64,000 nucleotides of DNA from Actinomadura fibrosa. Lineage in GTDB: Bacteria; Actinomycetota; Actinomycetes; Streptosporangiales; Streptosporangiaceae. Under the pieces are notes generated by a model, which ran no database searches, was not told the DNA's origin, and saw only the letters and a program-made list of their open reading frames with translations. Every line of letters begins with the position of its first letter. Within the stretch, counting starts at the first letter, position 1. The translations under genes and the position numbers were made by a program. Of this stretch, positions 1 through 32,853 are shown piece after piece. The DNA is taken from positions 1 through 64,000 of the forward strand of contig NZ_CAACUY010000028.1 of the NCBI RefSeq assembly GCF_900659615.1. Direction: 5' to 3'.

Positions 1-1
1 C

Positions 2-13633: not shown

Positions 13634-13637
13634 ACCC

Positions 13638-13675: not shown

Positions 13676-13699
13676 GGTAGCAGGACGGCACGCCGCCGG

Positions 13700-14470: not shown

Positions 14471-14486
14471 GGCGACTCCCCAACAC

Positions 14487-15577: not shown

Positions 15578-15747
15578 CGCCCGCCGGGAGGAGGTACCTC
15601 GAACCCGGGCGACGGATCATGTCCCGCGCCCCCGTACAGAACAAGACAGGACACCTCATGCGCGCAGCCGCCTGCAAAGCGTGGGTACGGCTGGCACCAT
15701 GAGCGACGGGACACCATGGTCTGCACGGGCGACGAGAGCGGCTCACC

Positions 15748-16668: not shown

Positions 16669-16675
16669 CGGAAGA

Positions 16676-17002
16676 TCAGGTGGGGGCGCTGAGCGGGGTC
16701 AGCCAGTGGATCTCCAGGTCCTCGCGCAGGTACTCCAGGCGGCGCCGCTGGAAGTCGGCGAGCTCGGGCCGCGCCAGGTGCGCGCGGAGGTCGTCGGCCG
16801 AACGCCACAGCTCGTAGAACACCAGCGTGCCCGGGTCGGCCGCGTCGCGGTGGACTTGGTACTGGAGGGCGCCCGGCTCGGCCCTGGTCGGTTCCACGAA
16901 CGACAGCAGCAGCCGCTCCAGCTCCTCCGCCCGCTCGGGCCGGGGACGGGCGAAACCGTAGACGCCGACGGGACCGCCGGTCTCAGGTACGACGATTGTC
17001 AT
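16676..17002 (-). CDS. ABM-superfamily monooxygenase (quinol monooxygenase-like)
   Basis: The 108-residue alpha+beta-barrel protein includes PVGVYGFARPRPERAEELER, EPGALQYQVHRDAADPGTLV and FYELWRSADDLRAHLARPEL, typical of the antibiotic biosynthesis monooxygenase superfamily (YgiN-like). These are cofactor-free monooxygenases on quinols or polyketide-like aromatics, or stress proteins. ATG 17002 abuts an operator and faces a divergent ArsR regulator 55 bp away, which most likely controls it. Confidence 0.87.
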   Translation of the reverse strand: MTIVVPETGGPVGVYGFARPRPERAEELERLLLSFVEPTRAEPGALQYQVHRDAADPGTLVFYELWRSADDLRAHLARPELADFQRRRLEYLREDLEIHWLTPLSAPT

Positions 17003-17046
17003 ACCTTGGACGCTAGCGAGCACCAAGGTACGATGCAAGTCGTACC
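17003..17046. promoter_or_regulatory. Divergent promoter/operator for ABM and ArsR genes
   Basis: The 55-bp intergenic region holds two perfect 7-bp inverted repeats: ACCTTGG (17003-17009) with CCAAGGT (17023-17029), and GGTACGA (17027-17033) with TCGTACC (17040-17046). They share three bases. This fits binding by the ArsR-type product of the gene at 17058 to both promoters. Confidence 0.65.
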
Positions 17047-17057
17047 TAGGGGGTGGG

Positions 17058-17360
17058 ATGGATCTCGGGAAGGTGTTCGCCGCGCTGGCCGACGACTCGC
17101 GGCGGCGGGTCGTGGCCGAGCTCGCGGCCGACCCCGGCGGCGGCGAGCGCGCGTGCGGCTCCTTCGACCTGCCGGTGAAGAAGGCCACGCGGACGCACCA
17201 CTTCCGGGTGCTGCGCGAGGCGGGGCTGATCGTCCAGCGCGACCACGGCAACGGCAGCGCCGTCTCGCTGCCGAGGGCCGACATCGAGGAGCACCTGCCC
17301 GGCCTGCTGGCGCTGCTGGTCGAGGAGCTCGGCCCCCGGCCGGGCGCCGGCTCCGCCTAG
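17058..17360 (+). CDS. ArsR-family transcriptional regulator
   Basis: The 100-residue winged-helix repressor includes LGKVFAALADDSRRRVVAEL, ATRTHHFRVLREAGLIVQRD and GNGSAVSLPRADIEEHLPGL. There is no metal-binding Cys pair in helix 3 (ArsR-type CVC), and the single early Cys is in GERACGSFD, so it is probably not a metal sensor. It is divergent from the ABM monooxygenase and likely represses it. Its TAG stop overlaps the reverse stop of methyltransferase 2 in a shared CTAG. Confidence 0.88.
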   Translation: MDLGKVFAALADDSRRRVVAELAADPGGGERACGSFDLPVKKATRTHHFRVLREAGLIVQRDHGNGSAVSLPRADIEEHLPGLLALLVEELGPRPGAGSA

Positions 17361-18160
17361 GGCTTGCGGCCGACCGCGCCGAACGCGTCCACGGCCTCGG
17401 GGGCGTCCCCGACGGTGACCTCCGGCCGCCACTCGGTCACCGACACCACGCCGGGCTCCAGCAGTTCGAGCCCGTCGAAGAAGCGGGCGATCCCCTCGGG
17501 CGAGCGCAGCACCAGCGGCGCGTTCCCCGAGGCGTTCCAGACCTCGACGATCCGGTCGGACGCGGCGCCGTGCACGACGTTCGTCCCGTCGTACATGGCC
17601 AGGAAGCTCCCGGACGGCAGCGCCGCGACGAGGCGCCGGACGATCCCGTACGCCTCCTCGTCGTCGGTGATGAACTCCAGGATGCCCATCAGCGTGAGCG
17701 CGATGGGACGGGAGAAGTCGAGCGTCCGCTCGGCCGCCTCCAGGATGCGGTCGGGCTCGCGCAGGTCGGCGTCGATGTACGCGGTCGCGCCCTCCGGCGT
17801 GCTGGTGAGCAGGGCCTGCGCGTGGGCCAGCACGAGCGGGTCGTTGTCGACGTAGACGATCCGGGACTCGGGCGCCGCGCGCTGGGCGACCTCGTGGGTG
17901 TTGTCGACCGTCGGCAGGCCCGTCCCGACGTCGATGAACTGGCGGACGCCCTCCTCGGCCGTCAGGTGCCAGACGACGCGGTTCAGGAACAGCCGGGACG
18001 CGCGGGCCAGCCGCGCGACGTCCGGGAGCATGGTCAGGATCTGGTCGCCGACCTCCCGGTCCACGGGATAGTTGTCCTTGCCGCCCAGCCAGTAGTTCCA
18101 GATGCGGGCCACGTGGGAAACGCTCGTGTCGATCTCGGGCGCGGGTCCGTGCTCGCTCAT
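17357..18160 (-). CDS. SAV2177-family SAM-dependent methyltransferase (copy 2)
   Basis: The 267-residue paralogue carries the family landmarks EIDTSVSHVARIWNYWLGGKD, DVGTGLPTVDNTHEVAQ and IVYVDNDPLVLAHAQALL, and ends EPGVVSVTEWRP. It is closer to copy 3 than to copy 1: both share VDNTHEVAQ/ADNTHEVAQ, and LLTSTPEGA matches LLTSTPQGA. ATG 18160 follows GGAAGG; ORF extension to 18196 has no support. It converges on the ArsR gene and shares a CTAG stop overlap. The substrate is unknown. Confidence 0.9.
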   Translation of the reverse strand: MSEHGPAPEIDTSVSHVARIWNYWLGGKDNYPVDREVGDQILTMLPDVARLARASRLFLNRVVWHLTAEEGVRQFIDVGTGLPTVDNTHEVAQRAAPESRIVYVDNDPLVLAHAQALLTSTPEGATAYIDADLREPDRILEAAERTLDFSRPIALTLMGILEFITDDEEAYGIVRRLVAALPSGSFLAMYDGTNVVHGAASDRIVEVWNASGNAPLVLRSPEGIARFFDGLELLEPGVVSVTEWRPEVTVGDAPEAVDAFGAVGRKP

Positions 18161-18306
18161 GCGCCGCCCTTCCGCGGAGGTTAGCCGGACCCCCATCCTG
18201 TCCCGGGACGCGGCGCGGCGACAGCGATTCGCGCACGGCCGCCGCGCCCTGATCCCTCCCCCGCTCCGCTCTGTGGTCTCCTTGGCCGTACCCGGGCCGG
18301 GTGCTA

Positions 18307-21141
18307 TCAGTCCTTGACCACGGTGTTCGCGGAGATCCGCGCCGTCGCCGCGTCCAGGGTGACCCGGTGCCGCGTGCCGTCCGCCGCCGCGACGCGGGCC
18401 TCCCAGGCCGCGCCGTCCCGCCGCCGCTCGAACTCCAGCGAGGTCACCCGTCCCGGAACGGCCTTGAGCGCGACGTCGGCGGCCGCCGCGGCGGTGACCT
18501 TCGCGTTCCGCAGCGCTGCCGCGCCGTCCGCGGACCTTCCTTCGTGGCCGCGGTGGCGCCCGTGGTCATCGCCGTGATCGTCGCCTCGGTCGTGCCCGTG
18601 GTCGTCGCCGTGGTCGTCGTCGCGTCCGCGGTCGTCCCCGCGGTCGCGCGGCTCGTTGGTCAGGACCTTGCCCGTGCCGGAGTCGACGACGACCTCCCGC
18701 CAGGTGCCGTCCTGCCGGGCGAAGGCGGCCACGCTGTCGGCGGCGGCGAGGCCGGCGCGCTCGGCGAGGCGCCGCCAGTGGGCGGCGAAGTCCGGGCGCG
18801 CGAGCGGACGCGGCGGCTCGGGCCTCGACGTGTCGGGCAGCGGCGAGCTCTCGCGCGGGTCCTTGGGGGTCCTCGGGAGCTGGGCCAGTGCCTGGACCTC
18901 GTCGGTGTAGGGCAGGTCGTAGCGATACTGGACGGGCAGGCCGAGCGCGGGGTCGCTCTGCGGCGGGTCGCCGTCGGGGCGGGGATCGAGCACCAGGCCG
19001 GGCAGCGAGAGCGCCACGAGGGGCAGGTCGAACAGCTTGTCCGACTCCGTGCCGAGCCATTCGCGGGCGGGCGCGGAGGTGCCGCCGTAACGCGGCCAGC
19101 CCGCGGCGCCGTCCGCGGTGAAGCGCCACTCCTTCGGCAGGTCCAGGCCGTCCTGGCGGATCACCGGCAGCTCGAACGGGACGAGCTGGCGGCCGGCGAT
19201 CGGCACGTTGGGCGGGCTGACGCTCTGGGTGAGCGCGAGGGCCTGCACCATCGGCAGGGTCGGGTGGCGGCGCCAGACGAGGGGCAGCGCGGCGCCGAGG
19301 GTGTCGGGCGGCAGCGCGCCGCTGTTCACCAGGGTCCGCAGGAGCACCGGGTCGGCGCCGTACTGGAAGGCCCAGGCGCCGAGGCCGGCCGAGGGGGCGG
19401 ACTCGCTCCGCGCCTCGAAGCCGATCGCGTCGAAGGCGAGCCGCACGAGGGGCGGGAACAGCTCGCGCCCGGTGACGGTGCGGAGGGGGACGGTCGCCAG
19501 GCCGCCGATCCAGTCGTCGAAGCCGGGCAGGGCGTCGGCCGCGGTGGGCGCCTCGGTGCTCAGCCAGAACAGGCCGCTGACCGCCACCTCGGGTGCGTCC
19601 AGTGCCACGTCGGCGGACTGGAGCTGGAATCCCCCGCCGACCGGGCCCAGCACCCATGTGGCGGTCATGCGCTGGGCCGCGGCGAGGGTGAGGCTCCAGG
19701 GCTGCTCGCCGGGGACCCGGCCGAGCCCGGCCGGATCGTCGTTGCCGAAGCTGACGGCGCCGCGCAGCAGGTTGCCGGGCACCGGGGCGGGCTCCTGCCG
19801 GGCCGCGCCCGCGTCGAGGTAGATCTGCTCGGACAGGTTGGGCAGCGGGAGCTGGGCCCAGCCGTCGTCCAGCGGAGTGAAACCCCACAGCACGGGCGGC
19901 GCGACCGGCCCGGTCTCGCCCTGCGCCGGCCGGCTCCAGGACGGTTCGGGCAGCAGCAGCGTGGCGCGGAGCCGGCGCGCGGCCTCGTTCGGGTCGAAGG
20001 CGAGCGAGGTGGCGCCGAGGGTGACCCGCTCGCTCCAGCCGGTGCCGTCCCGGTCGGCGTCGTAGCCGAACGTGCCCGCGGGACCGGCGGGCGGGCCGCC
20101 CGCCGCCAGCTGCACCCGCAGTTTCGTGCCGTCGGCGGCCACGCGGGCGCTGGTGGGCGTGATCCGGGCGAGCGTGTCCGGCTGCGCGGCCGGATCGTAG
20201 GGGCGGCGGTCGGACAGCAGCACGGCGAACTCGTCGCCCGCGAAGCCGATCGGACGCGTGCCGGGCTGCTCCTGCCAGGGCGCGATCTCCCAGAACAGGC
20301 GCGGGACGGAGAGCGGGTCGGCGAGCTCCAGGGTGGCCCACCCGGGTGCGGGGACCGGCTCGGCCAGGCCGTTCAGCGGGTTGTTGGGGTTGACGTAGCG
20401 GTTGAAGCGGCGCCAGGAGTCGATGATCGCCACCCGTTCGGCCGCGGTCAGCCGCTCGGCCTCGATCGTCATCCGGAAGCCGCGCACCCGCGTCCCCGCC
20501 GCCGGTTCGGGGTCGGGGACGAGCCGGGCCAGCTGGAACACGGCGGTGACCTGCGCGCTGTCCCACAGCAGGCGGACCTTCCCGCAGACCGACAGGCCGC
20601 CGGAGTGGACGGAGAGGGCGCCGAGCAGGCGGGCCGGGCCGGTGCGCTGGGTGATCGCCGCCGTGTCGAGCCCCAGTGCCGTGTACAGCTTCTGGGTGGC
20701 GCCGGCCTGGGCCGTCATCGGATCGAGGACGATCTCCCCGCCGAGGCAGGTGAAGGCCGGCAGCTTGCCGGCCGCGTTCTTGGGCCAGCCGTCGGGCGGG
20801 GCCTGGAGGAGCAGCAGGCTGGCGGTGCCGGCGGTGATCGCGGCCCGGATCGCCTGCGGCGACAGCTTGCCGTCGGGCTTGTTCCCGCCGCGCTTCCACA
20901 CGTACTGCGGCGTGCTCCCGTTGGTCGGGCTGATCGTGACGCTGGTGGCGTAGACCAGCGCCAAGACGGAGCCCGGCAGCAGCACACCGTCCTCGCCGAC
21001 CGCCTGCCGCGGTGTCGTGTCCGCGAACAGGGTGCGGAACGCGAAGTCGGTGACCGGATCGGCCAGCCGGATCACGTCGGCCTCGGCCGCCCAGAACGGG
21101 CCGGAGATCTTCAAGCTCGGCAGCTCGGGAAGGGTCGTCAT
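18307..21141 (-). CDS. Large hypothetical protein with C-terminal PepSY-like units and His/Asp tract
   Basis: The 944-residue protein is the last gene of the three-gene operon; ATG 21141 follows AGGAG and lies 55 bp after the giant gene. Residues 1 to about 780 are beta-rich, with many Trp and Pro-Gly turns, and match no family I know. The C-terminus resembles two PepSY units: about 790-828 (WREVVVDSGTGKVLTNEP) and about 875-944 (HRVTLDAATARIS). They flank a low-complexity tract of about 35 residues made of Asp, His, Gly and Arg (DDHGDDHGHDRGDDHGDDHG), which could bind metal. No signal peptide or membrane segment is seen, which is odd because PepSY is usually extracytoplasmic. Confidence 0.8.
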   Translation of the reverse strand: MTTLPELPSLKISGPFWAAEADVIRLADPVTDFAFRTLFADTTPRQAVGEDGVLLPGSVLALVYATSVTISPTNGSTPQYVWKRGGNKPDGKLSPQAIRAAITAGTASLLLLQAPPDGWPKNAAGKLPAFTCLGGEIVLDPMTAQAGATQKLYTALGLDTAAITQRTGPARLLGALSVHSGGLSVCGKVRLLWDSAQVTAVFQLARLVPDPEPAAGTRVRGFRMTIEAERLTAAERVAIIDSWRRFNRYVNPNNPLNGLAEPVPAPGWATLELADPLSVPRLFWEIAPWQEQPGTRPIGFAGDEFAVLLSDRRPYDPAAQPDTLARITPTSARVAADGTKLRVQLAAGGPPAGPAGTFGYDADRDGTGWSERVTLGATSLAFDPNEAARRLRATLLLPEPSWSRPAQGETGPVAPPVLWGFTPLDDGWAQLPLPNLSEQIYLDAGAARQEPAPVPGNLLRGAVSFGNDDPAGLGRVPGEQPWSLTLAAAQRMTATWVLGPVGGGFQLQSADVALDAPEVAVSGLFWLSTEAPTAADALPGFDDWIGGLATVPLRTVTGRELFPPLVRLAFDAIGFEARSESAPSAGLGAWAFQYGADPVLLRTLVNSGALPPDTLGAALPLVWRRHPTLPMVQALALTQSVSPPNVPIAGRQLVPFELPVIRQDGLDLPKEWRFTADGAAGWPRYGGTSAPAREWLGTESDKLFDLPLVALSLPGLVLDPRPDGDPPQSDPALGLPVQYRYDLPYTDEVQALAQLPRTPKDPRESSPLPDTSRPEPPRPLARPDFAAHWRRLAERAGLAAADSVAAFARQDGTWREVVVDSGTGKVLTNEPRDRGDDRGRDDDHGDDHGHDRGDDHGDDHGRHRGHEGRSADGAAALRNAKVTAAAAADVALKAVPGRVTSLEFERRRDGAAWEARVAAADGTRHRVTLDAATARISANTVVKD

Positions 21142-21196
21142 CTGCTGCTCCTGGTCCGCTCTCGGCCTCGGGGGCCGCACTCGAAGGCCGTGGTGC

Positions 21197-24100
21197 CTAC
21201 ACGTCCGCGGGCTCGATCGGCCGCGGTTCGCTCGGCGTGGCGCTGCCGCGGTGGGCGCGGATCACTAGCGACCGTCCGCTCATGCCGCCGCCCTGGCTCG
21301 CGCGGTGCAGCCGCCGAAGGGCGAGCTGGTCGGGCCGGCCGGGGTAGGCCGGGAGCAGCGCGTCCGGATCGTCGGCGCGCATCATGCCGTGGTAGCGCAT
21401 GAGCACGGCGCCGAGCAGCAGCTTCCCGGCGAGGACGCCGCTCAGCCCGGCCTGCGTGGGGCGTACCGCGACGGTGAAGGGGACCGTGACCGTGGACGGC
21501 GGCGGGCCGCCCGTCCCGGCGTCCCGTACCGCCACGATCAGCTTCTCCACGGCCGCGGCGAACTCGGGGAACCGGGCCCACCGCCGCAGGGCGTCGATGT
21601 CCGCGCCGCTCATCGCGCCGGTCCATCCGATGGTGGTGTACTGCGTGCCCGCCGCGTTGCGTGCGACCTGCACCCTGCCCCGGAGCTCGTCGGGGATCTG
21701 CTCCGGTCCGGCGGGGATCTCCACCCGGGTGCTGGCGTCGGGATCCGCGCCCGCGGCCTGGGCGATGAGCTGGTTGACCGCACCGGTGAAGGCGCTGTCG
21801 CCGGGAAGCAGCCGCAGATCTCCGGCGGCGGCGTCCGAAGGTCCCTCCCAGACCAGGGTCAGGGTCTGCGCGGGCAGGAAGTCGATCAGCGCCGCGAGGC
21901 GGCTCGGCAGCGTCGCGGCGGGGGCGCTGACCGGCTCGGTGACGTCCCAGCTCTCGTACAGCCGCCGGATCTTCGCCGCGTCCGCCGCGCCGACCAGCCC
22001 GACCAGGGCGTCGCGGTCCGCCCGCGTCATCACCCCGGCGAACAGCAGGCGCCCGTGCTCGTCGACGGCCACCCGGTTGCGCGTGCCGAGCGGCAGGTTC
22101 GCCGTGGGGTAGCCGGCGCTCAGCCGCTCCTCGCTCACCTGCACCAGGTCGACGGCCAGCGGGAAGTCGCCGAGGGGGTCCGCCGGGGGCGCCAGCGTGG
22201 TCCGCGCCACCAGGAACCGCTTGCCGAGCTGGCGGTGGGTGAACCGCCCGGCGACCGGGTCGTAGAAGCACTCGGCCTGCACCTCGATGTTGCCGCTGAA
22301 CAGCTCGACGATCTGGTAGACCACCTCGGGGTCGGGCAAGGCGCTGAGCTTGCGCGCCGCCGCCCCGTTGCCGGCGGGGTCGGGCCGCTCGCCCGGCCAG
22401 CGCTGCTGGGCCTCGTCGGAGAGGCTGTCCCAGAGCCGGCGCAGCGGGACGGTGACGGTCCGCACGCGGGTGTCGGGCTCCAGTGGGGCGTCGCCGGGGA
22501 TGCCGTCCGGGAAGGGCGGCAGCCGGTGCCAGACGATGTCGGCGCCGCTCACGGTGGCGCTCGGCAGCGGCGAACGGTAGGCCAGGTCGCGCTGGGTGAC
22601 GCTGTTGACCGGCGAGACGGTGCCGTCGGTCTGGGCGATCACCAGCAGGCGGTGCTCGTAGTAGAAGGGCAGGGCCCGCCACTGGAGGGCGAGGGCGCCC
22701 CGAGAGAAGTCGCCGACGCGTTCGGGCAGGTCGAGGCCGCGCAGCTCGTCCTGGTCGGCCGCGCCGCCGAGGTCGAGGTGGTCCGGCGTGCCCGGCAGGC
22801 CGTCCGGGACGGGCGGGTACTCCCCCTCGACGAGCCGCACGGGCAGCTCGTGCTGGTGGTCCGCCGCGAAGTCGCGCACCCAGCGGTACCAGGCCGGGTA
22901 GCCGAAGCGGCGCAGGAGGCTGAAGGCGACCTGGCGGAAGGCGAGCTGGCGCACGAGGGTCTGGTTGCGCTCGGCGAGGGCCTGCTCGTGGTGCTGGGCG
23001 ACGATGACCTCCCAGATCGCGCCGGGCGCCGGCGGGGCGGCCGGGGTGGCCGGCCCGTCGAGCCGGCGCGAGCCGAGGATGAGCGGAGCGTCGACGGCCT
23101 GCGTGCGCCCGATCACCACGTCGAGGCCGCCCGCCGCGGGGTCCACCTTCACGGCCGGGGCGCCGGCGTCGGCGGCGGCGCGGCCGGGGAAGAGCGTGGG
23201 CGAGCGGCGCAGGCTCTGCCAGAGCAGGTCGTAGCGGCCGAAGGGCTGGAGGTAGTAGCGCAGGGTGTGCGCCCAGCGGTCCTCGACCGGCTGGGTGTAG
23301 GTCAGGCGCCCGCCGGCGTCGGGCGTCGCCAGCGCGGGCGAGCCCGCGCGCGGGTAGGCCGTGGCCGTCCAGGGCCCGGTGCCCGTCCTGCCCAGCCCGT
23401 CCGGCCCCGTGCCGATCGCGCCGCCGGCGTCGAAGAAGCGCGCCGTCCAGGCCAGGACGTCGGGCAGCGCCTTGGCGATCTCGGCCTCGCCGGTGGGGAA
23501 AGTGACCTTGCGGGTGCCCGGCACCTTGGGGTCGTTGCTGTTCAGGGTCTCCACGTAGTACGTGAGCCGCAGCCACTGGACGCGCTCGGGCGCGCTGCCG
23601 TCCGCCGCGGCGAACACCTTGGCCAGGGCCTCGGTCGCGACGGTGAAGTGGTCGGTGCGCTCGTCCGTCGGGCCGAACTCCTCGCTGCGCACCGTCCCGG
23701 CCAGGCCGTCCGCGGCCTGGCGGTCGGCCGCGGCGAGGGAGGGACGCACAAGCTCGATCTGGGCGGCGCTGAGCATGGTGCGAGCGCTGAGCAGCTTGCG
23801 GCCCTGGTCGTAGTCGAGCAGCGACGCGATCGCCGGGACGAAGGGCCCGGGGTCCGCGCTCAGCTTCACCGACGGGCGTACCTCGATCGTCGCGGGCAGC
23901 GTCGCACCGCGCAGGAGCATGGCCGCCTCGCCGTTCAGCGGCAGCCTGATCCGGCGGGTGGTCGGGGTCGGCTGCGGTTCGAGCTCCAGTTGACCGGTCC
24001 TGCCGTCAGGACGGTCGACCAGGCTGCAAGGCGCGGTGAGCGTGAAGCGCACCTCGACCTCGGTGTTCGAGCGTCCGCTGATGGTGACGGCGCGGTAGCG

Positions 24101-27100
24101 CAGCCGCTGCCGCACGGCGGGCCGCAGGCTGAGCTGGACCAGGGCCAGGAGGTCGTCGCCCTCGGCCGGCCGCTCGCCGAGCTGGACGCTGCGTCCCGGC
24201 TGGAACAGCAATTCCACATGGAGGTGGCGGCGGAGGGCGGCGAACGCCGCGGCGTCGGGGTCGGGATCGGGGCCGGTCCCGCCGCTCCCGAGCCGCGCGA
24301 ACAGCTCCTTGAGCAGTTCCAGCAGCTTCGGGCCGTGCAGGGTGCCCGCGGAGGGGTCGTGGAGGCTGAAGGTCACCGCCAGGCCGAGGCGCTGGAGCGC
24401 GCCCCAGCCGTACCGGTCCGCGCCCGGCGGGCAGCTGGCCAGGAAGTCGGCCAGGTCGTTGGGCAGCGTCGGCGGGCTGGCCTGGAGCGCGGCGGCATAG
24501 CCGTCCGACAGCCGGCCCTGCGGGTCGGTGGTGCTGCCGGGGCGCATCGCGCGCAGCCGCTCCACCAGGCGTTCGAGCAGCGGGTGCAGCGCCGTCTCGC
24601 GCCTGCCGCCGGGCTGGGTGACGCCCTTCCACTCCGGCCATTCCAGGTAGGAGTCCTGCCAGGAGTACCAGGGGCCGCGCTCGTCCCGCACGCCCTGGGC
24701 GGACGGATCGGGCGGGCGGCGGCGCTGGACGGCGCCGGGGTACCAGGCCTCCCACTGGCCGGTGTTCAGCGTGTCGCCGGGCGCGAGCGGCAGGTCGTCC
24801 GCCGGGATCATCTGGACCTCTTGGAGGAGCCGCAGCTCCTCGGCGAGGCGGGCGGGACTGGCGAAGGTGTCCGTGGTGGCCGCGTCGATGTTCAGCTCGT
24901 ACAGCCGGTAGCCGGCGTTCAGCTCCAGAGGGTAGGCGGCGTCGCCGCTCGGTCCCTGGTTCCAGCGGAACCGGATCGCCCGGATGCCGAGGGGATGCGG
25001 CCGGAACCCGACGGTCGCGCCGATGTCGCCGGTGAAGACGAACGGGGGCGGCCCGGCCGTCTCCGCGGCGGACCCGTCGGCGTCCTGGACCGGCATCGGC
25101 GTGTGCGCCAGGCCCGGCTCGGCCCGCTCGTCCTCGGGCCGCACCACGTCGAAGGCGGTCGGGCGGGGCAGCCACTCCAGCTCCGCCGGGCGGCGCTCCT
25201 CGCGCGGGTTGCCCGTGTGCTCGATGCGGTCGGCCGGCGCGGGCGTGGTGGGCGGCGCGGCCACCGCTTCGGCGGCGAGCATGAGCTGCACCGGCGCCAG
25301 CGCCGAGGGCACGTCGCGGTCGGAGATCGTCTGGAAGAAGACCCGCCACGCCTCGGGACGCCACGCGCCGTCGGGCAGCACGCCCCGCTCGCGGAGCACG
25401 GCGACCGGGATCACCGCTCCGCGCGCACCGGGCGGCCCGAAGACGGGATCGAGGTCGATCTTGATGTCGGTGGGCAGCGGCCGGGCGTTCGACGTCGGCA
25501 GGCCGGCGGTGCGCCCGCGCTGGGTCGTGCTGTCCAGGCCGTAGGAGCCGATCGGCACCGTGCTCTCACGGCGGAAGATCAGCCGGTAGGTGCGGATCGG
25601 CACCGCGGGGCCGTCCTGGCGGGCCGGCTCGCTCCACTCGACGTAGACCTGGCGCGGCGCCAGCACCGTGGGGGTCGCCGCGGTGCCCGCCGGTTCGAGG
25701 TCGGACGGGGCGATGCTGTAGCTCACCGTGAGGTCGCCGTCCACCGGCACCGCGGGAGGAGTGCTGGGGTAGCGGGTCGCGATCAGGGTCAGCGGGCGCC
25801 CGGCGGTCCCGGCGAAGTCGACCGGGGTGATCGTGTAGACGTAGCCGCGTCCCTCGCGCGGCAGGGCGGCGCGGTCGGCCGCCGTGTCCGGGAAGTGGTC
25901 GACCACCTGGAAGCGCGGCTGGAGCAGCGCGAGGGTGTCGGTCGGGACGGCCTCGCCCGCTTCCCCGGCGCCGGGGACGTCGGTGGTGTGGCGGTGCAGC
26001 ACCGCGACCGGTTTCACCGTGGTGGTGTGCTCGGCCTCGCCGCCGTCGAGGGCGCGCCTGCGCACGAGGTAGTGGGCCAGGTGGTGGTCGGGGTCGTTCT
26101 GCGCCCGGCTCATCCCCGGCGTGCCCGGGCGCTGCCAGCTCAGGTCCCAGGCGAGGGCGATCGTGCTCGCGTCGCTGTACTGGCGCACCTGCTGGAACTC
26201 GGGCGGGAACAGGCTGAACTGGGCCTGGGCGACGTTGAAGGCGCGCACGTCCTGGCCCGCCGTTCCGGGGTCGGTCGCCTCCGGCCGCTCGCGCTGGCCG
26301 ATGGACGGCTGGGCGTCCAGGCCGGTCGCCACCTGGTCGAGCCACGCCGGACGGTGGCCGTCGGCGCTCCGCACCGCGAACACCAGTCCCATCTGGAAGG
26401 CCAGGGAGCGGGCGACGATCTTGGCGCGCTCGGCCTGGTCGGCCTCGGCTTGGAAGGCGCGCAGGTCGGAGATGATGTCGTGGATGATCACTCCGCGCAT
26501 CTGGTGGGCCTGCTGGTCGGCCTGGACCGCGCCGACGGTGCCGGGATCGCCGCCGTCCTGGGCGGTGCCGTCGGCGGCGTAGATCGTCGTGTCCGGGCCG
26601 AAGGCCGACTCCAGCAACCGCTCGTAGAGCTCCTGGCGGTCGCGCTTGAGGAAGGGCGAGCCGCTGAACTGCTCGTACGCCCCGCGCACGGCGGCCTCGA
26701 AGGAGCCGTCGGACGGGTTCTGCACTCGCGGGTCGCTGACCGGTGGCCGATAGCCCGGCAGCGCGCCGGGGTCGCCGACCGGGCGGGCGACCGCGCCGTC
26801 CCCCGCGCCCGTGTAGGTCTGCTTGAAGGCGTTGGCGAGGTGCTGGGCCAGGCTGAGCCCGTCCGCCAGGGGCGCGGGGGCGCCCGGTTCTCCCGTGGCC
26901 TGGTTCACGACGCGGCGCTCGGCGGAGCCGTCGGCGTAGAGCCGCGCCGCCCAGTTCACCTTCCAGGTGATCGGCTCGCCCGCGGTGACCGCACCGCTCA
27001 CGTCGACGAACCGCGGATCGGGCAGGGGATCGAAGTGCCGGAGCGTGTAGCTCTCGCCCGCCGCCGGTTTCGGCACGCGCAGGGCGAAGTCCTTCCCGAC

Positions 27101-30100
27101 CGCGGTGCCCGCGGAGGGCGGCGGCGGCAGGAAGCCCCGCTCGGGTTCGGCCACCGGGAAGCCCTCCTCGTCGAGGACGAGCCGCCCCTGCGCGTCCCGG
27201 TGCAGCCGTTCGGCCTGCGGCAGCAGGACGAAGTACGTGTGCTTCTCCGCGTCCCAGCTCGGCGCGTCGCGCAGGACGAAGACGACGTAGCCGGGCACAT
27301 GGAACACGTCGGCCTCGGCCGGGGCCGCCGTCTCCTCGCCGAGCACGGCCCTGAGGGCGCGCGGCGGCAGGGCCGGGCGCCGCGCGTCCAGCCCGCGCGC
27401 GAGGTCCGGCGCGGCGTCCAGTGCGGTGCCGGTGCCGGGCACCGGCTCGACCTCGGTGGCCTCCAGCCCCAGCGACAGGAACCCCTTGGTCCGGTCGAGG
27501 GCGGCCTGGACGTTGTCCTCCTCGAACGCCACCTTGACCGTGGCATGGAGGCTGTGGCCGCAGCACGAGACGCCGACCGTTCCGACGCCCCGCACGCCGG
27601 GCACGCTCAGCCCCTTGACGCCGATCTCCAGGCCGGCGCTGAACGCGATCTCCAGGCTGAATCTGAACGAGAGCCGGATGGTGGTGAAGACCAGCGGGAT
27701 CTTGATCCAGAACTCGATGGCGAAGGCGACCTGCACCTCCAGCCCGATCGCGCCGTAGACGGCCGAGCCGTTCACGGGGTCGCGGAAGTCGATCACGCCG
27801 ATGTAGCGCGCCCCGAAGGCCACCCGCGCGGTGGCGCTGATCCGCATGCCGACCAGCCCGAGGTCCACGCCCGCGCTCAGTTCGAGCCTGCCGCGGGCCA
27901 GGAAGCTCGTCCCGAGCACCATCTCCGTGGTCGAGACGCGGAGGATGAACCCGCCCTCGACCTCCACGGCCAGCGGACCGAGCTGGGTGTGCCAGCGCAG
28001 CATGTTCGGCCAGCCCAGCTCGTAGTGGAACAGCCCAGGCTCGATCAGCAGGGTCGCCGAGAACCGGCTGTTCGCGATCGCGTCCCGGACGAAGTCGGGC
28101 AGCGGCGGATGGACGCCCGGCTTCCCTCCCTCGGGCTTGAAGACGTGGGCCAGGAAGCGCTTCTGGCGGGGTGAGAGCAGCACGAAGCCGCTCAGGATGG
28201 GGTTCTCGCGGACGCCGTCCTTGTTGGTGACGTAGTCGGCGTAGTTGGTGTTGAACCAGCCGCGCACCGCCATGAAGAAGGTCAGGTCGCTGCGCAGGGC
28301 GATGATCGCGTCGACGAGGAAGACGCAGGCGAGGTCCGCCTCGGCGAGGGCCTCGTAGCGCAGGGGCGAGGCCGACGCGGAGGTCTGCGAGATCATCGCC
28401 CGCAGGACGATCGTCCAGCGCGGGTCCTGCCCGGCGTCCTCCAGGTCCACCGCCCAGCGGTCGCGCTTGGACAGGTCCCCCTGGGTGCGCGACAGGCCCT
28501 CCAGGGTCTTGAGCAGTTTCCGGACGTCGTTCTCGGCGTCGGCGGCCTTGATGGCGGCGATCGTGAAGCGGTAGCCGAAGCCCATGCCGATCTCGCGCAG
28601 GTAGATCTGGATCACCGGGATCATGAAGCTGACCTGGCGGATCTCCAGGTAGAGGAACCAGGCCCGCAGCCACGGCGAGCCGGCGCCGCGGCGCACGCGC
28701 AGGAACCCGAAGCTGGCCGCGATGGCGGGCAGGCCCTGGATCTGCACCAGGCCCTCGCCGACCAGCCCGGTCTGGTCGGGCTGGTCGACGAAGTCGACCG
28801 CGCCGTTGAGCCGGAAGGCCGCGCCGATGGCCAGGTTCACCGCCAGGTGCGTGAAGTGGATGCGCGGCAGGAACTCGCCCGGCAGCGGCAGGCCGATGAA
28901 CAGCTCGTGGTAGTCGGGCCGCGAGTCCGGCGTGTCGCCCGGGCCCTGGGCGAACTTGAGCTGGCCGGTCACCTGCATGGCGCCGTCGCCGTCGAAGAAG
29001 TCGCACTGCGGCACGAATCCGATGGCGCGCAGTTCCATCTCGAAGCAGCCGAGGAAGTTGAACGACACGGGTTTGGGCAGCTCGATCAGGAACTTCACGT
29101 GCTTGGCGATCACGCGGGCGTCGCCGGTGAGCGGGCACTGGACGAGGTCGATGCGGGTCTTGCCGAGCAGGGCCAGCGGCCCGTCGGGGTCGTCGCCGGG
29201 GGCCGCCACGAACTGGGCGGACCCGGTGACGGTGAAGTAGAGGTGGAAGGCGCCGTCGTCCACGAACCGCAGGCCCAGGGCGTCGACCGAGAACTGGAAG
29301 CGCGTGCCCTTGCAGTCGAGCAGCTTGACGCCGCGCAGGTTCGCCGCGCCCTGCACCAGGGTCAGGTTCCCCCCGTCGCGCTGGGCGAACTGCAGGGCGA
29401 TGTCGGCCGTGGCGTCGCCGACGAGGTCGGGCGGCAGCGGGCCCGAGCCGGCGATGGTGAAGTCGGCGATGCGGTTCTCGCGGATCACGAAGCCGCTGTC
29501 GGTGAAGCGGAAGCGCGTGCGCAGGCCGTTGAGGCGGGCCGGCCGGTCGGTGACGGCGGCGGCGAGGCTGACGCCCTTGGGCGTGAGGGCGAAGTCCCGC
29601 ACGCTGAAGGTGATCGGCTCCTCGCTGGCCCGCGTGAAGTCGAGCTCCAGCACGGCCCCTTCGGGCTGCTGGATCTGGTAGTGGTAGTCCTTCGTGGCGA
29701 TGGTGAGGTAGTGGAAGGTCTTGTCGCCGAGATCCCTGCCCTTGAACCGCCAGCGCAGCCCGAATAGGTCGGGGAACTCCCGTTCGGCCTCCGTGGAGCG
29801 CAGCTCGATCCCCTGGTCGTGGTCGACCTTGAGGGCGAACGTCCGGAGGTTGAAGGTCAGGCGGCACAGCAGGTCGAGGCTGATGCTCAGTATCCGCACC
29901 CGCACCCCGATGTCGAAGGCGACCTCGCCCTGCGGAAGGGTGATCGGCAGCCCGTCGAGCGGTGTGCGGGTGTAGAGCTGCACGAACTGGGAGTCCCCGC
30001 CCTGGCCCTGCTTGAGGAAGGGCAGCGTGAAGTCTCCGCCGCCCGCGTCGACGTCGACGCTCAGCTGCGCCGTCCAGCCGTCCTGGAGGTCGGCCGGGTC

Positions 30101-31216
30101 GAACGCCACGGGCGTGCAGAGGGCGGCCGGGTCGTTGAGGTCGAGCGGGGCGATCGGCGTGGTGAGCTGGCGGAAGAAGCCGGGCAGCTCGGCGGCGCCG
30201 AGCGCGACGTCGAGCAGCACCAGGCTCCGCGGGCCGTCCGCGGGCGTGAGCGAGACGCTGAAGAGGGGCTTGCCGGGCGGCTGCGGCGTCTCGTCGTTGT
30301 GCAGTTCGCGGTCGCCGTCGCGGTTCCAGGCGAAGGTGCTGCCCGCGGTCACGGCGCCGTCCCCCGCCAGGGTGACGACGAAGGCGGCGCGGCCGAGGCC
30401 CGCGCCCTGGCGCAGCAGCAGCAGCGAGAAGCGGCTGGAGGCCGGAAGGCCCACGCTGAGCCCGGGGAGCGCGAAGGCGGCGCCGGGCGCGGCCGCCTGC
30501 CAGTCCAGGCGCACCTCTTCAAGCCCGTCGCCGATGATCAGCCGCAGCGTGACCTGCTGCTCGCCCGCCGGGCTGCGGTCGCCCAGGTTCGGCAGGAACC
30601 GGCCGAGCAGCCCGTTGAGACCGCCCTCCTTCCACTGGAGCACCAGGCACGCCTTGCCGCCCGCGCGGTGGAAGGCGACCGCGGCGCCGTCGACCACCAC
30701 GCCGGTGTCGCCGACCATCACCGGGTGGGGCAGCTGGGCCGTGAACGGCGCGTCGAAGACGATGCCGTCCTTGCTGGCGCTGCCGCTGAGCTTCGGCATG
30801 GCGAGCTGGACGAAGGGGCGTCCGGGATCGGGCTCGTAGCGGACGTCGCCGCCGCCCGCCACCCTGCGCATGGGGCGCAGCAGCTCCGGGCCGAACCGCA
30901 GCGCGACGGGCACGTCGGTCACGCGCAGCACCGTCTTCGGCAGCACGTCGATCTCCAGGCCCAGTTCCGCCGCCGGGGCGTCACCGCCGCCGGGGAACAG
31001 CACCAGGCTCACCGCGTCGACGCCGGGCAGGCCCAGGACGAACTCCTGCTCGAACAGCAGCCGGGTGGTCAGGTTGACCTCGCCGGCCTTGGCGGTGGTC
31101 TGCGGCGGCTCGATCCAGACATGGTCGAGCGTGGCCGGATCGGAGGGCCGGGGCAGGAAGGCAGGCCACTTGCTGCCGAAGTACTCGTTGAGGGTCACGA
31201 ACATGGTGCTGCTCAT
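21197..31216 (-). CDS. Giant hypothetical protein, 3,339 residues
   Basis: A single uninterrupted frame of 10,020 bp. ATG 31216 overlaps the stop of the PLD-like gene as ATGA, which decides the start. There is no signal peptide. Residues about 1-450 are beta-rich (LRLIIGDGLEEVRLDWQ). Residues about 450-1250 are a long run of alternating hydrophobic/polar strands (FQFSVDALGLRFVDDG, IHFTHLAVNLAIGAAFRLNG, YLREIGMGFGYRFTIAAIK, LSFRFSLEIAFSAGLEIGVK), as in a repeating beta-groove or barrel. From about 1300 on, mixed alpha/beta segments and fibronectin-like pieces (VYVEWSEPARQDGPAVPIRT) occur. The strand-rich part recalls DUF6603-type giants, but this is not certain. Function unknown. Confidence 0.88.
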   Translation of the reverse strand: MSSTMFVTLNEYFGSKWPAFLPRPSDPATLDHVWIEPPQTTAKAGEVNLTTRLLFEQEFVLGLPGVDAVSLVLFPGGGDAPAAELGLEIDVLPKTVLRVTDVPVALRFGPELLRPMRRVAGGGDVRYEPDPGRPFVQLAMPKLSGSASKDGIVFDAPFTAQLPHPVMVGDTGVVVDGAAVAFHRAGGKACLVLQWKEGGLNGLLGRFLPNLGDRSPAGEQQVTLRLIIGDGLEEVRLDWQAAAPGAAFALPGLSVGLPASSRFSLLLLRQGAGLGRAAFVVTLAGDGAVTAGSTFAWNRDGDRELHNDETPQPPGKPLFSVSLTPADGPRSLVLLDVALGAAELPGFFRQLTTPIAPLDLNDPAALCTPVAFDPADLQDGWTAQLSVDVDAGGGDFTLPFLKQGQGGDSQFVQLYTRTPLDGLPITLPQGEVAFDIGVRVRILSISLDLLCRLTFNLRTFALKVDHDQGIELRSTEAEREFPDLFGLRWRFKGRDLGDKTFHYLTIATKDYHYQIQQPEGAVLELDFTRASEEPITFSVRDFALTPKGVSLAAAVTDRPARLNGLRTRFRFTDSGFVIRENRIADFTIAGSGPLPPDLVGDATADIALQFAQRDGGNLTLVQGAANLRGVKLLDCKGTRFQFSVDALGLRFVDDGAFHLYFTVTGSAQFVAAPGDDPDGPLALLGKTRIDLVQCPLTGDARVIAKHVKFLIELPKPVSFNFLGCFEMELRAIGFVPQCDFFDGDGAMQVTGQLKFAQGPGDTPDSRPDYHELFIGLPLPGEFLPRIHFTHLAVNLAIGAAFRLNGAVDFVDQPDQTGLVGEGLVQIQGLPAIAASFGFLRVRRGAGSPWLRAWFLYLEIRQVSFMIPVIQIYLREIGMGFGYRFTIAAIKAADAENDVRKLLKTLEGLSRTQGDLSKRDRWAVDLEDAGQDPRWTIVLRAMISQTSASASPLRYEALAEADLACVFLVDAIIALRSDLTFFMAVRGWFNTNYADYVTNKDGVRENPILSGFVLLSPRQKRFLAHVFKPEGGKPGVHPPLPDFVRDAIANSRFSATLLIEPGLFHYELGWPNMLRWHTQLGPLAVEVEGGFILRVSTTEMVLGTSFLARGRLELSAGVDLGLVGMRISATARVAFGARYIGVIDFRDPVNGSAVYGAIGLEVQVAFAIEFWIKIPLVFTTIRLSFRFSLEIAFSAGLEIGVKGLSVPGVRGVGTVGVSCCGHSLHATVKVAFEEDNVQAALDRTKGFLSLGLEATEVEPVPGTGTALDAAPDLARGLDARRPALPPRALRAVLGEETAAPAEADVFHVPGYVVFVLRDAPSWDAEKHTYFVLLPQAERLHRDAQGRLVLDEEGFPVAEPERGFLPPPPSAGTAVGKDFALRVPKPAAGESYTLRHFDPLPDPRFVDVSGAVTAGEPITWKVNWAARLYADGSAERRVVNQATGEPGAPAPLADGLSLAQHLANAFKQTYTGAGDGAVARPVGDPGALPGYRPPVSDPRVQNPSDGSFEAAVRGAYEQFSGSPFLKRDRQELYERLLESAFGPDTTIYAADGTAQDGGDPGTVGAVQADQQAHQMRGVIIHDIISDLRAFQAEADQAERAKIVARSLAFQMGLVFAVRSADGHRPAWLDQVATGLDAQPSIGQRERPEATDPGTAGQDVRAFNVAQAQFSLFPPEFQQVRQYSDASTIALAWDLSWQRPGTPGMSRAQNDPDHHLAHYLVRRRALDGGEAEHTTTVKPVAVLHRHTTDVPGAGEAGEAVPTDTLALLQPRFQVVDHFPDTAADRAALPREGRGYVYTITPVDFAGTAGRPLTLIATRYPSTPPAVPVDGDLTVSYSIAPSDLEPAGTAATPTVLAPRQVYVEWSEPARQDGPAVPIRTYRLIFRRESTVPIGSYGLDSTTQRGRTAGLPTSNARPLPTDIKIDLDPVFGPPGARGAVIPVAVLRERGVLPDGAWRPEAWRVFFQTISDRDVPSALAPVQLMLAAEAVAAPPTTPAPADRIEHTGNPREERRPAELEWLPRPTAFDVVRPEDERAEPGLAHTPMPVQDADGSAAETAGPPPFVFTGDIGATVGFRPHPLGIRAIRFRWNQGPSGDAAYPLELNAGYRLYELNIDAATTDTFASPARLAEELRLLQEVQMIPADDLPLAPGDTLNTGQWEAWYPGAVQRRRPPDPSAQGVRDERGPWYSWQDSYLEWPEWKGVTQPGGRRETALHPLLERLVERLRAMRPGSTTDPQGRLSDGYAAALQASPPTLPNDLADFLASCPPGADRYGWGALQRLGLAVTFSLHDPSAGTLHGPKLLELLKELFARLGSGGTGPDPDPDAAAFAALRRHLHVELLFQPGRSVQLGERPAEGDDLLALVQLSLRPAVRQRLRYRAVTISGRSNTEVEVRFTLTAPCSLVDRPDGRTGQLELEPQPTPTTRRIRLPLNGEAAMLLRGATLPATIEVRPSVKLSADPGPFVPAIASLLDYDQGRKLLSARTMLSAAQIELVRPSLAAADRQAADGLAGTVRSEEFGPTDERTDHFTVATEALAKVFAAADGSAPERVQWLRLTYYVETLNSNDPKVPGTRKVTFPTGEAEIAKALPDVLAWTARFFDAGGAIGTGPDGLGRTGTGPWTATAYPRAGSPALATPDAGGRLTYTQPVEDRWAHTLRYYLQPFGRYDLLWQSLRRSPTLFPGRAAADAGAPAVKVDPAAGGLDVVIGRTQAVDAPLILGSRRLDGPATPAAPPAPGAIWEVIVAQHHEQALAERNQTLVRQLAFRQVAFSLLRRFGYPAWYRWVRDFAADHQHELPVRLVEGEYPPVPDGLPGTPDHLDLGGAADQDELRGLDLPERVGDFSRGALALQWRALPFYYEHRLLVIAQTDGTVSPVNSVTQRDLAYRSPLPSATVSGADIVWHRLPPFPDGIPGDAPLEPDTRVRTVTVPLRRLWDSLSDEAQQRWPGERPDPAGNGAAARKLSALPDPEVVYQIVELFSGNIEVQAECFYDPVAGRFTHRQLGKRFLVARTTLAPPADPLGDFPLAVDLVQVSEERLSAGYPTANLPLGTRNRVAVDEHGRLLFAGVMTRADRDALVGLVGAADAAKIRRLYESWDVTEPVSAPAATLPSRLAALIDFLPAQTLTLVWEGPSDAAAGDLRLLPGDSAFTGAVNQLIAQAAGADPDASTRVEIPAGPEQIPDELRGRVQVARNAAGTQYTTIGWTGAMSGADIDALRRWARFPEFAAAVEKLIVAVRDAGTGGPPPSTVTVPFTVAVRPTQAGLSGVLAGKLLLGAVLMRYHGMMRADDPDALLPAYPGRPDQLALRRLHRASQGGGMSGRSLVIRAHRGSATPSEPRPIEPADV

Positions 31217-32853
31217 GGCAGGCAACCCCCCCACGCCTCGCGCGAGTCGACATCGGCGTAACGGTCGTACTTATCCTGATCTTTTTCGCTGAGCACCGTC
31301 GGCGTCGAGGGCAGCGGCACGGGGATGACGGCGGACGGCAGGACGACCCCGCTGCCCGGCGTCCCCCACGCGCTGTTCCAGACGTTGAGCGCCTGGTCGA
31401 TGTCGGCGATCTTCTGCTGGTCGGCCGGGGCGAGCAGGCCGAAGGCGTCGCTCCAGAGCCGCACCCGGTACTGCTGCACCAGCAGGTCCTCCTCGTCGAG
31501 GAGGCCCACCGCGTGCTCGACGTCGCTGTAGAGGCTGCGCCGGAAGGCGTTGGCCGAACCGATGACCGCCCAGTGGTCGTCGACGATCGTGCTCTTGGTG
31601 TGGACGATCACATCGCGGCTGAACGCGCGCACCCGGCCGCGCTGCTGGGCGTTCAGGTCGTGGAGCAGCCCCTTGAACAGCGCGACGTTGGCGTACGGCG
31701 GGAAGTGCGGGTCGTTCGGGTCGGTGGCCCCGCAGACCAGGATGACCTTGAGGTCGTCGCGGGCCTTGAGGGCCTGGTTCAGCCAGATCATGATCTCGAC
31801 CGACCAGAACCCCTGGTCCTCGATGTAGACGTAGCGCTCGGCGGTGAGGACGGCGTTGAACCAGGCGGAGCGCACCTCGAAGAGGCCGTCCGGGGCGAAG
31901 GAGATCTTCTTGTTCTCGGGGAGCAGGTTGATGGTCTTGTAGTTGAAGCGCGGCACGGTGCGCAGCGACTGGACGTGGTGCTTGCCCACCGCCGTGGTCG
32001 GCAGGGTGCGCGCCGGAACGACCGGAGTGGCGGCCGTGTGGCTGGCGATCTTCTCGTCGGCGAAGCGGAACGACCTGATGTCCCGCGCCTTGAGCTCGTT
32101 CCACATGCTGCGGTACAGGTCGTACATCGCCTGCACCGCCGGTCCCTCGACCTTCGCCTGCACGTCGTGCCACGTCCTGGACGGGTGCGGCTGGCCGCCG
32201 TGGCGGTCGCCCACCAGGTCGAGTCCGCCGGTGTAGCCGATGGCGGTGCTGCCGTTGCCGACCAGCACCATCTTGGCGTGCACCGCGCCGGCGGAGTGGG
32301 CGATGATGTTCAGGCATGCCTTGTCGGCCAGCGCGGGCGCCTTGCGCAGCTCGCGGATCGAGCCCATGGTGCCGACGTTGACGTCCCGGATGCTGCCGGC
32401 CCCGTTCTGGACGGACGCGGTCAGGACGAAGTAGTCGGCCATCACCGAGAACGAGATCCAGCCCAGGACGCGGACGTCGACTCCGGCCGCCGCCTTGGCC
32501 TTGAGCAGGTCGACCAGATGGTTCGGGGCTCCGGGCCCGTCGAGCGAGAACGGGTTGTCCAGCCCCACCGAAGGCCCGGTCGACGCGCCCGACGAACTGG
32601 GCGAGGGGTTGACCCTCCCGCCCAGCAGATGGAGCCACCAGCCGGCGATGTAGAGGAACTGGCCGCTGTTCTCGCTCGGCGTCCCCTGCCCGAGGGCGGC
32701 GATCTGCGCGGCGAGGTCGGCGAAGTAGGTGCCGCCGTCGATCAGCGGGGTGACCCGGCAGCCGCCGAACGTGGCCGGCAGCGGTTCCGAGGGAGGACTC
32801 GTGTCATCGGGCTGGACGAAGTACTTCTTCCTCAGCGCATCGATATCGGCCAC
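31213..32853 (-). CDS. Phospholipase D-like protein with two HKD motifs
   Basis: The 546-residue protein heads the operon. The first HKD motif is H192-A-K194 in VHAKMVLVGNGSTAIGYTGG, followed by LDLVGDRHGG. The second, near residue 417, is VHTKSTIVDDHWAVIGSANA, then SLYSDVEHAV. Both His/Lys pairs are intact, so catalysis is plausible. Members hydrolyse or transfer phosphodiesters: phospholipids, cardiolipin or, less often, nucleic acids. No signal peptide is seen. GTG 32853 is preferred because GGGAG lies 7 bp upstream; the longer frame to 32907 adds a Trp/Phe/Cys-rich segment without a ribosome-binding site. Its stop overlaps the giant gene's start, so the two are coupled. Confidence 0.9.
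   Translation of the reverse strand: MADIDALRKKYFVQPDDTSPPSEPLPATFGGCRVTPLIDGGTYFADLAAQIAALGQGTPSENSGQFLYIAGWWLHLLGGRVNPSPSSSGASTGPSVGLDNPFSLDGPGAPNHLVDLLKAKAAAGVDVRVLGWISFSVMADYFVLTASVQNGAGSIRDVNVGTMGSIRELRKAPALADKACLNIIAHSAGAVHAKMVLVGNGSTAIGYTGGLDLVGDRHGGQPHPSRTWHDVQAKVEGPAVQAMYDLYRSMWNELKARDIRSFRFADEKIASHTAATPVVPARTLPTTAVGKHHVQSLRTVPRFNYKTINLLPENKKISFAPDGLFEVRSAWFNAVLTAERYVYIEDQGFWSVEIMIWLNQALKARDDLKVILVCGATDPNDPHFPPYANVALFKGLLHDLNAQQRGRVRAFSRDVIVHTKSTIVDDHWAVIGSANAFRRSLYSDVEHAVGLLDEEDLLVQQYRVRLWSDAFGLLAPADQQKIADIDQALNVWNSAWGTPGSGVVLPSAVIPVPLPSTPTVLSEKDQDKYDRYADVDSREAWGGCLP

What the first reader, a model, noticed from the sequence alone, without database searches (positions are those of the whole stretch)
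18307..32853. Three-gene operon: PLD-like enzyme, 3,339-residue protein, PepSY/His-Asp protein
A 14.5-kb minus-strand unit encodes a two-HKD phospholipase D-like protein, an uninterrupted giant protein (ATGA overlap with it) and a 944-residue protein 55 bp further on. None shows a signal peptide. The giant has a long alternating hydrophobic/polar strand pattern at about 450-1250, as in groove- or barrel-like lipid-handling proteins. With an intact PLD and a PepSY protein this suggests a lipid- or envelope-directed system, possibly exported by a non-Sec route or kept in the cytoplasm as a particle. Seen directly: gene order, coupling, motifs. Inferred: lipid link and joint function.
Basis: partly seen in the sequence, partly recalled or inferred. 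Interest (0 to 1): 0.85.

Follow-up and report, generated by a model that had tools for sequence, protein, structure and literature searches.

The report
Giant protein pair with swappable enzyme
A soil-bacterium gene cassette pairs two huge proteins of unknown family with an enzyme that may cut phospholipids; the same huge pair turns up in distant bacteria and on plasmids, sometimes beside a different enzyme, which suggests an undescribed carrier or delivery system.

Summary
Gene order and coupling are real, but the third gene is misread. PLD (31213-32853) and giant A (21197-31216, 3,339 aa) are intact and overlap by ATGA. The 944-aa "PepSY protein" is a chimera: residues 1-813 begin a second giant, B (about 2,880 aa in relatives); the rest is the tail of an unrelated secreted PepSY protein. 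B's other 2,000 residues end another contig of the same assembly, so a misassembly at about 18.70 kb is most likely.

A-B is conserved: B follows A in 36 of 42 distinct loci; in the other six the readable sequence stops first. Hosts span actinobacteria, myxobacteria, Chloroflexi, cyanobacteria and proteobacterial plasmids. PLD accompanies A in 13/13 actinobacterial and 0/29 other loci; a few others carry PhoD, L,D-transpeptidase or papain-like genes. PLD divergence tracks A residues 1-100 (r about 0.9). A's core is predicted as a long amphipathic antiparallel beta-sheet. A matches no curated family; a DUF6603 locus of similar layout lies elsewhere in the genome.

Best reading: a mobile two-giant carrier with an interchangeable hydrolase docked on A's N-terminus. 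Docking and delivery are inferred.

The parts
31213..32853 (-). PLD-like enzyme, 546 aa, GTG start; HxK(x4)G and HxK(x4)D motifs
   Evidence: Pfam PLDc_2 E 3.2e-10 and PLDc E 5.9e-6; next to A in 13 of 13 actinobacterial loci; motifs
31213..31216 (-). ATGA overlap: PLD stop codon and A start codon
   Evidence: same coupling in 12 of 12 actinobacterial loci looked at
21197..31216 (-). giant A, 3,339 aa, no curated family
   Evidence: homologues in 42 distinct loci
30917..31216 (-). A residues 1-100, the segment that co-varies with the PLD (proposed docking segment)
   Evidence: r 0.90-0.91 with PLD identity, partial r 0.89-0.90, 0 of 300 permutations as high
27446..28909 (-). A residues 770-1257, predicted amphipathic antiparallel beta-sheet
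   Evidence: pLDDT 87.5, pTM 0.78; face difference 3.22 against 1.27 shuffled
18703..21141 (-). N-terminal 813 residues of giant B; the remainder is on contig C34 of the same assembly
   Evidence: 85% identity to residues 1-813 of a 2,878-aa B; residues 875-2878 at C34:55456-61455
18307..18702 (-). NOT part of the system: tail of an unrelated secreted PepSY gene fused in frame to B at the junction
   Evidence: 59% identity to a stand-alone gene in G203; DNA to the left is colinear with that locus

Best explanation
PLD-A-B is a mobile cassette encoding a two-giant carrier (A and full-length B) that works with one interchangeable hydrolase, here a PLD-like phosphodiesterase. Shown by sequence: A-B is the constant core; the neighbouring enzyme differs between some lineages; within actinobacteria the PLD and the first 100 residues of A vary as a unit while the rest of A is steady. 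Predicted: A's core is one large amphipathic beta-sheet; full-length B carries a laminin-G-like domain. Inferred: the enzyme docks on A's N-terminal segment, A's hydrophobic face engages lipid or membrane, B helps recognise a surface, and the assembly, having no obvious Sec signal, is released or presented to bring an envelope- or lipid-attacking enzyme to a target, probably in competition between bacteria.
For: B directly follows A in 36 of 42 distinct loci, the other six being cut or stopping first. PLD in 13/13 actinobacterial loci and 0/29 others; directly adjacent hydrolases elsewhere: PhoD in L038, YkuD in L014 and L052, Peptidase_C70 in L019. Translational coupling of PLD and A. PLD identity follows A 1-100 and hardly the rest of A. 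Patchy presence: 14 of 65 genomes of the genus, 1 of 150 sampled over the family; flanks differ between loci (7 of 66 pairs share a tblastx hit); 8 of 11 plasmid records typed conjugative. Amphipathic sheet. LamG in B, E 7.9e-18. A second locus of the same genome has the same layout, PhoD-like enzyme coupled to a DUF6603 giant.
Against: No export route, immunity gene or target was found or systematically searched for. Of 17 hand-picked neighbour proteins only a minority are recognised hydrolases, and many proteobacterial loci show no adjacent enzyme. The PLD/A 1-100 covariation could be a recombination block without physical contact. Full B was not modelled. The PLD substrate is unknown: the first HKD motif lacks its Asp.
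Confidence: 0.42

Rival explanations
1. Intracellular lipid handling: A (with B) is a cytoplasmic lipid-binding scaffold or particle, and the PLD or PhoD enzyme remodels the bound phospholipid.
For: Long amphipathic sheet; best aligned chain for the larger model is ApoB-100 (Z 14.6, rmsd 7.2, 270 residues); no obvious signal peptide; PLD and PhoD families include lipid phosphodiesterases (general knowledge).
Against: L,D-transpeptidase and papain-like neighbours in other lineages do not act on lipid; LamG domain in B suggests contact with glycans outside; patchy and plasmid-borne distribution.
Confidence: 0.25
2. Defence against phages or plasmids: the cassette is a mobile immunity locus and the PLD-like enzyme is a nuclease effector.
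For: Some PLD-like proteins are nucleases, and weak DrmC matches were seen (best E 2.2e-4); mobile, patchy distribution; defence-like genes near some plasmid loci such as Avs1c in L010.
Against: PADLOC gives no model for A or B; the adjacent enzymes elsewhere include PhoD, YkuD and Peptidase_C70 rather than nucleases.
Confidence: 0.13
3. A and B are parts of a contractile injection system or another known toxin particle, with PLD as its effector.
For: A LysM domain inside A of L038; giant signal-less proteins with a separate enzyme resemble such particles in outline.
Against: A sheath-family protein was found in only 7 of 15 genomes that carry A; no sequence match in the PDB with profiles of A and B (one match at E 8.2 to a designed protein).
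Confidence: 0.08
4. One reading: a natural three-protein lipid/envelope system with a 944-aa PepSY partner (a true rearrangement, not a misassembly).
For: The ORF is open in frame across the junction; the N-terminal half of the PepSY gene was not found elsewhere in the assembly.
Against: B is 2,878-2,890 aa in five of seven relatives looked at; the rest of B lies at a contig end of the same assembly; DNA left of the junction is colinear with an unrelated G203 locus.
Confidence: 0.04

Closest known systems
DUF6603 (Pfam PF20248) loci
   Same: Giant beta-rich protein coupled to an enzyme gene and followed by further very large genes; PhoD-like proteins of the two kinds of loci are homologous (30% over 882 aa, E 5e-95); N-terminal regions align weakly (hhalign probability 42%, E 2.6e-4, controls 0.1%).
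   Different: A does not match the DUF6603 model; one of 8 A homologues does at E 0.011, none of 13 in a second set; core profiles do not align (probability 1.4%); genes downstream of DUF6603 had no BLASTP match to A or B.
Phospholipase D superfamily (PLDc_2)
   Same: Pfam match over the cut-off and two HxK motifs.
   Different: First motif lacks the Asp; far below the cut-offs of the cardiolipin synthase models; coupled to a giant.
Apolipoprotein B, LptD and porin-like beta-sheets (by fold only)
   Same: Long antiparallel meander with one hydrophobic face; VIA Z 14.6 to ApoB-100 for the 1,141-residue model, porins and Tom40 at Z up to 13.1 for the 488-residue model.
   Different: Porin alignments have rmsd of about 12-18; no Foldseek match with E<=0.001 for the 488-residue model; no sequence match in the PDB.
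Polymorphic toxin and effector cassettes
   Same: A constant large partner with a changing hydrolase.
   Different: The enzyme is a separate upstream or downstream gene, not a C-terminal domain; immunity gene and secretion route not identified.

Membership tests
PLD superfamily | Two HxK(x4)D motifs | tested here: inconclusive
   Second motif canonical; first is HxK(x4)G in 13 of 13; Pfam PLDc_2 over the cut-off
DUF6603 (PF20248) | Match to the family model over its cut-off | tested here: not met
   No match for window A at E<=1; best of 8 homologues E 0.011; none of 13
DUF6603 (PF20248) | Alignable core profile | tested here: not met
   hhalign probability 1.4% (only 3 DUF6603 sequences)
DUF6603 (PF20248) | Shared N-terminal helical region | tested here: inconclusive
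   Only in the two Chloroflexi A proteins: probability 42%, E 2.6e-4, controls 0.1%
AsmA / TamB / repeating-beta-groove proteins | Sequence match to their Pfam models | tested here: not met
   No Pfam family at E<=1 for A; none of these among matches of 8 and 13 homologues
AsmA / TamB / repeating-beta-groove proteins | Groove fold | tested here: inconclusive
   Amphipathic sheet predicted; fold searches cannot decide
ApoB / large lipid transfer proteins | Amphipathic lipid-binding sheet | tested here: inconclusive
   Z 14.6, rmsd 7.2, 270 residues with the larger model; lipid binding not testable here
Outer-membrane porins | Closed membrane barrel | tested here: inconclusive
   Z up to 13.1 but rmsd about 12-18; coordinates not available to check closure
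Contractile injection system | Sheath gene in the same genome | tested here: not met
   PF04984 in 7 of 15 genomes that carry A
Known anti-phage defence systems | PADLOC model match of A or B | tested here: not met
   No family at E<=1 for A or the window's B ORF; PLD has weak DrmC matches only
Polymorphic toxin cassette | Adjacent immunity gene and known secretion route | not tested
   No systematic search for immunity genes was made

The most novel reading that the evidence does not exclude
A new class of bacterial protein machine: two giant proteins without obvious signal peptides, one built around a single large amphipathic beta-sheet, form a lipid- or membrane-engaging carrier onto which interchangeable hydrolases (PLD, PhoD, L,D-transpeptidase, papain-like protease) dock through a swappable N-terminal segment; DUF6603 loci are a second branch of the same design.
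Probability: 0.33. Interest if true: 0.9.

Novelty: categorically new. Interest (0 to 1): 0.72.

Why it matters
A conserved pair of proteins totalling about 6,000 residues, spread over several phyla and carried on plasmids, matches no curated family. It offers a concrete, testable layout (constant carrier, changing enzyme, co-varying segment) and gives a first context for DUF6603, for which one full-text search found no paper. If the carrier reading holds it would be a new way to bring envelope-attacking enzymes to a target; if the lipid reading holds, a bacterial counterpart of large lipid-carrying proteins. It also corrects a chimeric gene that would otherwise be read as a PepSY partner.

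Tried and rejected
Rejected: PepSY as a component. A search of the own genome with the N-terminal half of the G203 PepSY protein found only the window's own tail and weak matches (best other E 0.01), so that half is absent from the assembly and a true rearrangement is not fully excluded. DUF6603 as the direct family: model not matched, core profiles do not align. Phage origin: no match in 50,697 phage records and no confirmed relative in IMG/VR. Contractile injection: no consistent co-occurrence. PDB sequence searches with profiles of A and B and with three neighbour proteins gave nothing useful; the viral fold library gave only low-TM matches to phage and other viral proteins. Fold lists: ApoB-100 is the best VIA row for the 1,141-residue model but is not among the 50 rows shown for the 488-residue model, where porins and Tom40 lead; absence from such a list does not exclude a family. 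Weak or unconfirmed enzyme calls: L048 M23 (Pfam E 0.087); L033 (SxGC), L039 (His-rich, murein-endopeptidase-like) and L041 (NlpC/CHAP-like) rest on motifs recalled from memory with no supporting family match. Literature: searches listed no paper that I could recognise as describing this system; only listings and abstract starts were seen and no paper was opened.
Full report
What is there. The minus strand holds a PLD-like gene (31213-32853, 546 aa), giant A (21197-31216, 3,339 aa, ATGA overlap) and, 55 bp on, an ORF of 944 aa (18307-21141). The assembly has 10.9 Mb in 568 contigs. A is 77-88% identical over its length to A of ten Actinomadura loci and one Kribbella locus, so the organism is Actinomadura-like. 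Pfam, NCBIfam, PHROGs and PADLOC give no family for A at E<=1. A is under purifying selection (pN/pS 0.35-0.40 against three relatives).

The third gene is a chimera. In relatives the gene after A encodes B: 2,878-2,890 aa in five of seven Actinomadura loci looked at (of the other two, L064 gave a frame of 855 aa and in L066 my gene picker chose the opposite strand), and open frames of 2,532-2,896 aa in ten other genomes (an eleventh is cut by a contig end, and in three of 14 this search with the window's B found nothing). Window residues 1-813 match B; residues 814-944 match the tail of a separate secreted two-PepSY protein of genome G203 (59%). Five DNA blocks left of the junction are colinear with that G203 locus (two short further hits are not). 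Residues 875-2878 of B lie at C34:55456-61455 of the same assembly, on a contig of 61,457 bp, 82% identical to the relative. The junction near 18.69-18.70 kb is therefore most likely an assembly error. A true rearrangement is not excluded, because the N-terminal half of the PepSY gene was not found elsewhere in the assembly.

A-B is the conserved unit. One tblastn search gave 11 plasmid records and one scan of 84,980 species genomes gave 31 loci, of which L044 is the same record as L017. With the window this makes 42 distinct loci. B directly follows A in 36: 30 by profile search after dropping the duplicate L044 row and counting L021's two pieces once, and six by tblastn only (L025, L026, L030, L031, L034 and the window). 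In the other six (L023, L036, L037, L039, L051, L052) the held sequence ends inside A or, for L037, the frame stops at residue 1,801 about 0.4 kb from the end; the genome of L036 does hold B on another contig. In L025 B is in pieces and in L021 both A and B are. Hosts include Actinomadura, Kribbella, Pyxidicoccus, Anaerolineae, cyanobacteria, Planctomycetota, Binatia and alpha-, beta- and gammaproteobacteria. Eight of the 11 plasmid records are typed conjugative. Presence is patchy: 14 of 65 genomes of the genus, own included, and only the own genome among 150 sampled over the family. Upstream flanks of 12 actinobacterial loci share a tblastx hit in 7 of 66 pairs, strongly in one (L022/L030) and moderately in another (L025/L031), so the cassette sits in different places. 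No relatives were found in phage records or IMG/VR.

The enzyme slot. PLD is next to A in 13 of 13 actinobacterial loci and was not found in the held DNA of the 29 others (tblastn E 1e-4; L035 has almost no upstream sequence). I scanned 17 hand-picked neighbour proteins of other loci, not all neighbours. Directly beside A or B on the same strand are a PhoD-like gene (L038, upstream), YkuD genes (L052 upstream, L014 downstream) and Peptidase_C70 (L019 downstream; the L020 record annotates a papain-like protease in the same place). L048 has a gene overlapping A with a weak M23 match (E 0.087). L012 has PLD genes farther away. L013 has an Ig-like protein and then a gene clustering with the L052 YkuD; the L017 record annotates an M23 peptidase in a similar place. 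The other scanned neighbours gave unrelated families (cytochrome b561, response regulator, GGDEF, DUF499, transposase) or none (L033, L039, L041, L043, L051). So exchange of the enzyme is clear in some lineages and not seen in many proteobacterial loci.

A docking hint. Among 12 actinobacterial loci (L023 left out), PLD identity ranges from 58 to 86% for pairs whose A proteins are 84-86% identical. PLD identity correlates at 0.90-0.91 with identity of A residues 1-100 (partial correlation given A 301-end 0.89-0.90, 0 of 300 permutations as high), more weakly with 101-200 (partial 0.40 and 0.32; 1 and 8 of 300) and not with 201-350; some later bins show partial correlations of 0.17-0.31 with 8-36 of 300 permutations as high. 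The enzyme and A's first 100 residues thus travel or evolve together; a recombination block would give the same signal without contact. Outside actinobacteria the alignment of the seven closer relatives starts at A 187-193 in six and at 48 in one (L036), so this segment is lineage-specific.

Structure. Residues 150-1290 gave an all-beta model of moderate confidence (pLDDT 75.5, pTM 0.46). Residues 770-1257 alone gave pLDDT 87.5 and pTM 0.78: a long antiparallel meander with strands of up to 23 residues, mostly with one hydrophobic and one polar face (difference 3.22 against 1.27 when shuffled, 0 of 2,000); strands 831-841 and 871-882 are not amphipathic. VIA rows: ApoB-100 first for the larger model (Z 14.6, rmsd 7.2, 270 aligned), porins, maltoporin and Tom40 for the smaller one (Z up to 13.1, rmsd about 12-18), for which Foldseek has no match at E<=0.001. 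I read this as one large amphipathic sheet; whether it closes, forms a groove or wraps lipid is not known. Full-length B of a relative carries a laminin-G domain (residues 1252-1413, E 7.9e-18).

A sister layout. The same organism has a DUF6603 gene on contig C68; the end of a PhoD-like gene overlaps its start (GTGA) and more very large genes follow. That PhoD-like protein aligns over 882 aa (30%, E 5e-95) with the PhoD-like protein beside A in the Anaerolineaceae MAG. A second DUF6603 locus has a homologous PhoD-like gene (Pfam E 3.5e-5, just below the cut-off) and a third an M64 peptidase gene (E 1.8e-21). N-terminal regions of the two Chloroflexi A proteins and three DUF6603 proteins align with hhalign probability 42%, E 2.6e-4, against 0.1% in two control comparisons; the cores do not align (1.4%). 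DUF6603 was found in 3 of 149 genomes sampled over the phylum and in 2 of 14 other genomes that carry A. A is not filed under DUF6603, but the two kinds of loci look alike.

How it probably works. Shown: constant A-B, coupled genes, a changing enzyme in some lineages, a co-varying A N-terminus, mobility. Predicted: amphipathic sheet in A, lectin-like domain in B. Inferred: docking, lipid or membrane contact, release without Sec, attack on a target envelope. Rivals: intracellular lipid handling (0.25), defence (0.13), part of an injection system (0.08) and the original PepSY unit (0.04).

Known or new. No paper was found on DUF6603 or, as far as listings and abstract starts show, on a system like this (open-access library only). 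A matches no curated family; B has only LamG, and single A homologues carry LysM (L038) or WD40 insertions.

Noticed in passing
window 18690-18703: Probable chimeric assembly junction: left of it the window is colinear with an unrelated locus of a congener, so genes at 1-18690 may not be true neighbours of the cassette.
   Followed up: yes
L056 (G000:C68:22001-41192): The own genome carries a DUF6603 giant whose start overlaps the end of a PhoD-like gene, followed by more very large genes.
   Followed up: partly
L057:5196-6368 (+): An M64 (IgA) peptidase gene lies where other DUF6603 loci have PhoD, suggesting enzyme exchange there too.
   Followed up: partly
L021, L025, L037, L064: A or B is in pieces or stops early in a few loci; decay and sequencing error were not distinguished.
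   Followed up: no
L038, A about residue 2926: A LysM domain is inserted in A of the Anaerolineaceae MAG; another A homologue carries WD40 repeats (not located).
   Followed up: partly
L012 (Mesorhizobium plasmid pOM4): Around A-B lie two PLD genes and genes annotated as caspase, S8, M20 and trypsin-like proteins.
   Followed up: no
L029 (Kribbella antibiotica): The cassette is 77% identical in A to the window although the genus is distant, which suggests horizontal transfer; no tree was made.
   Followed up: no
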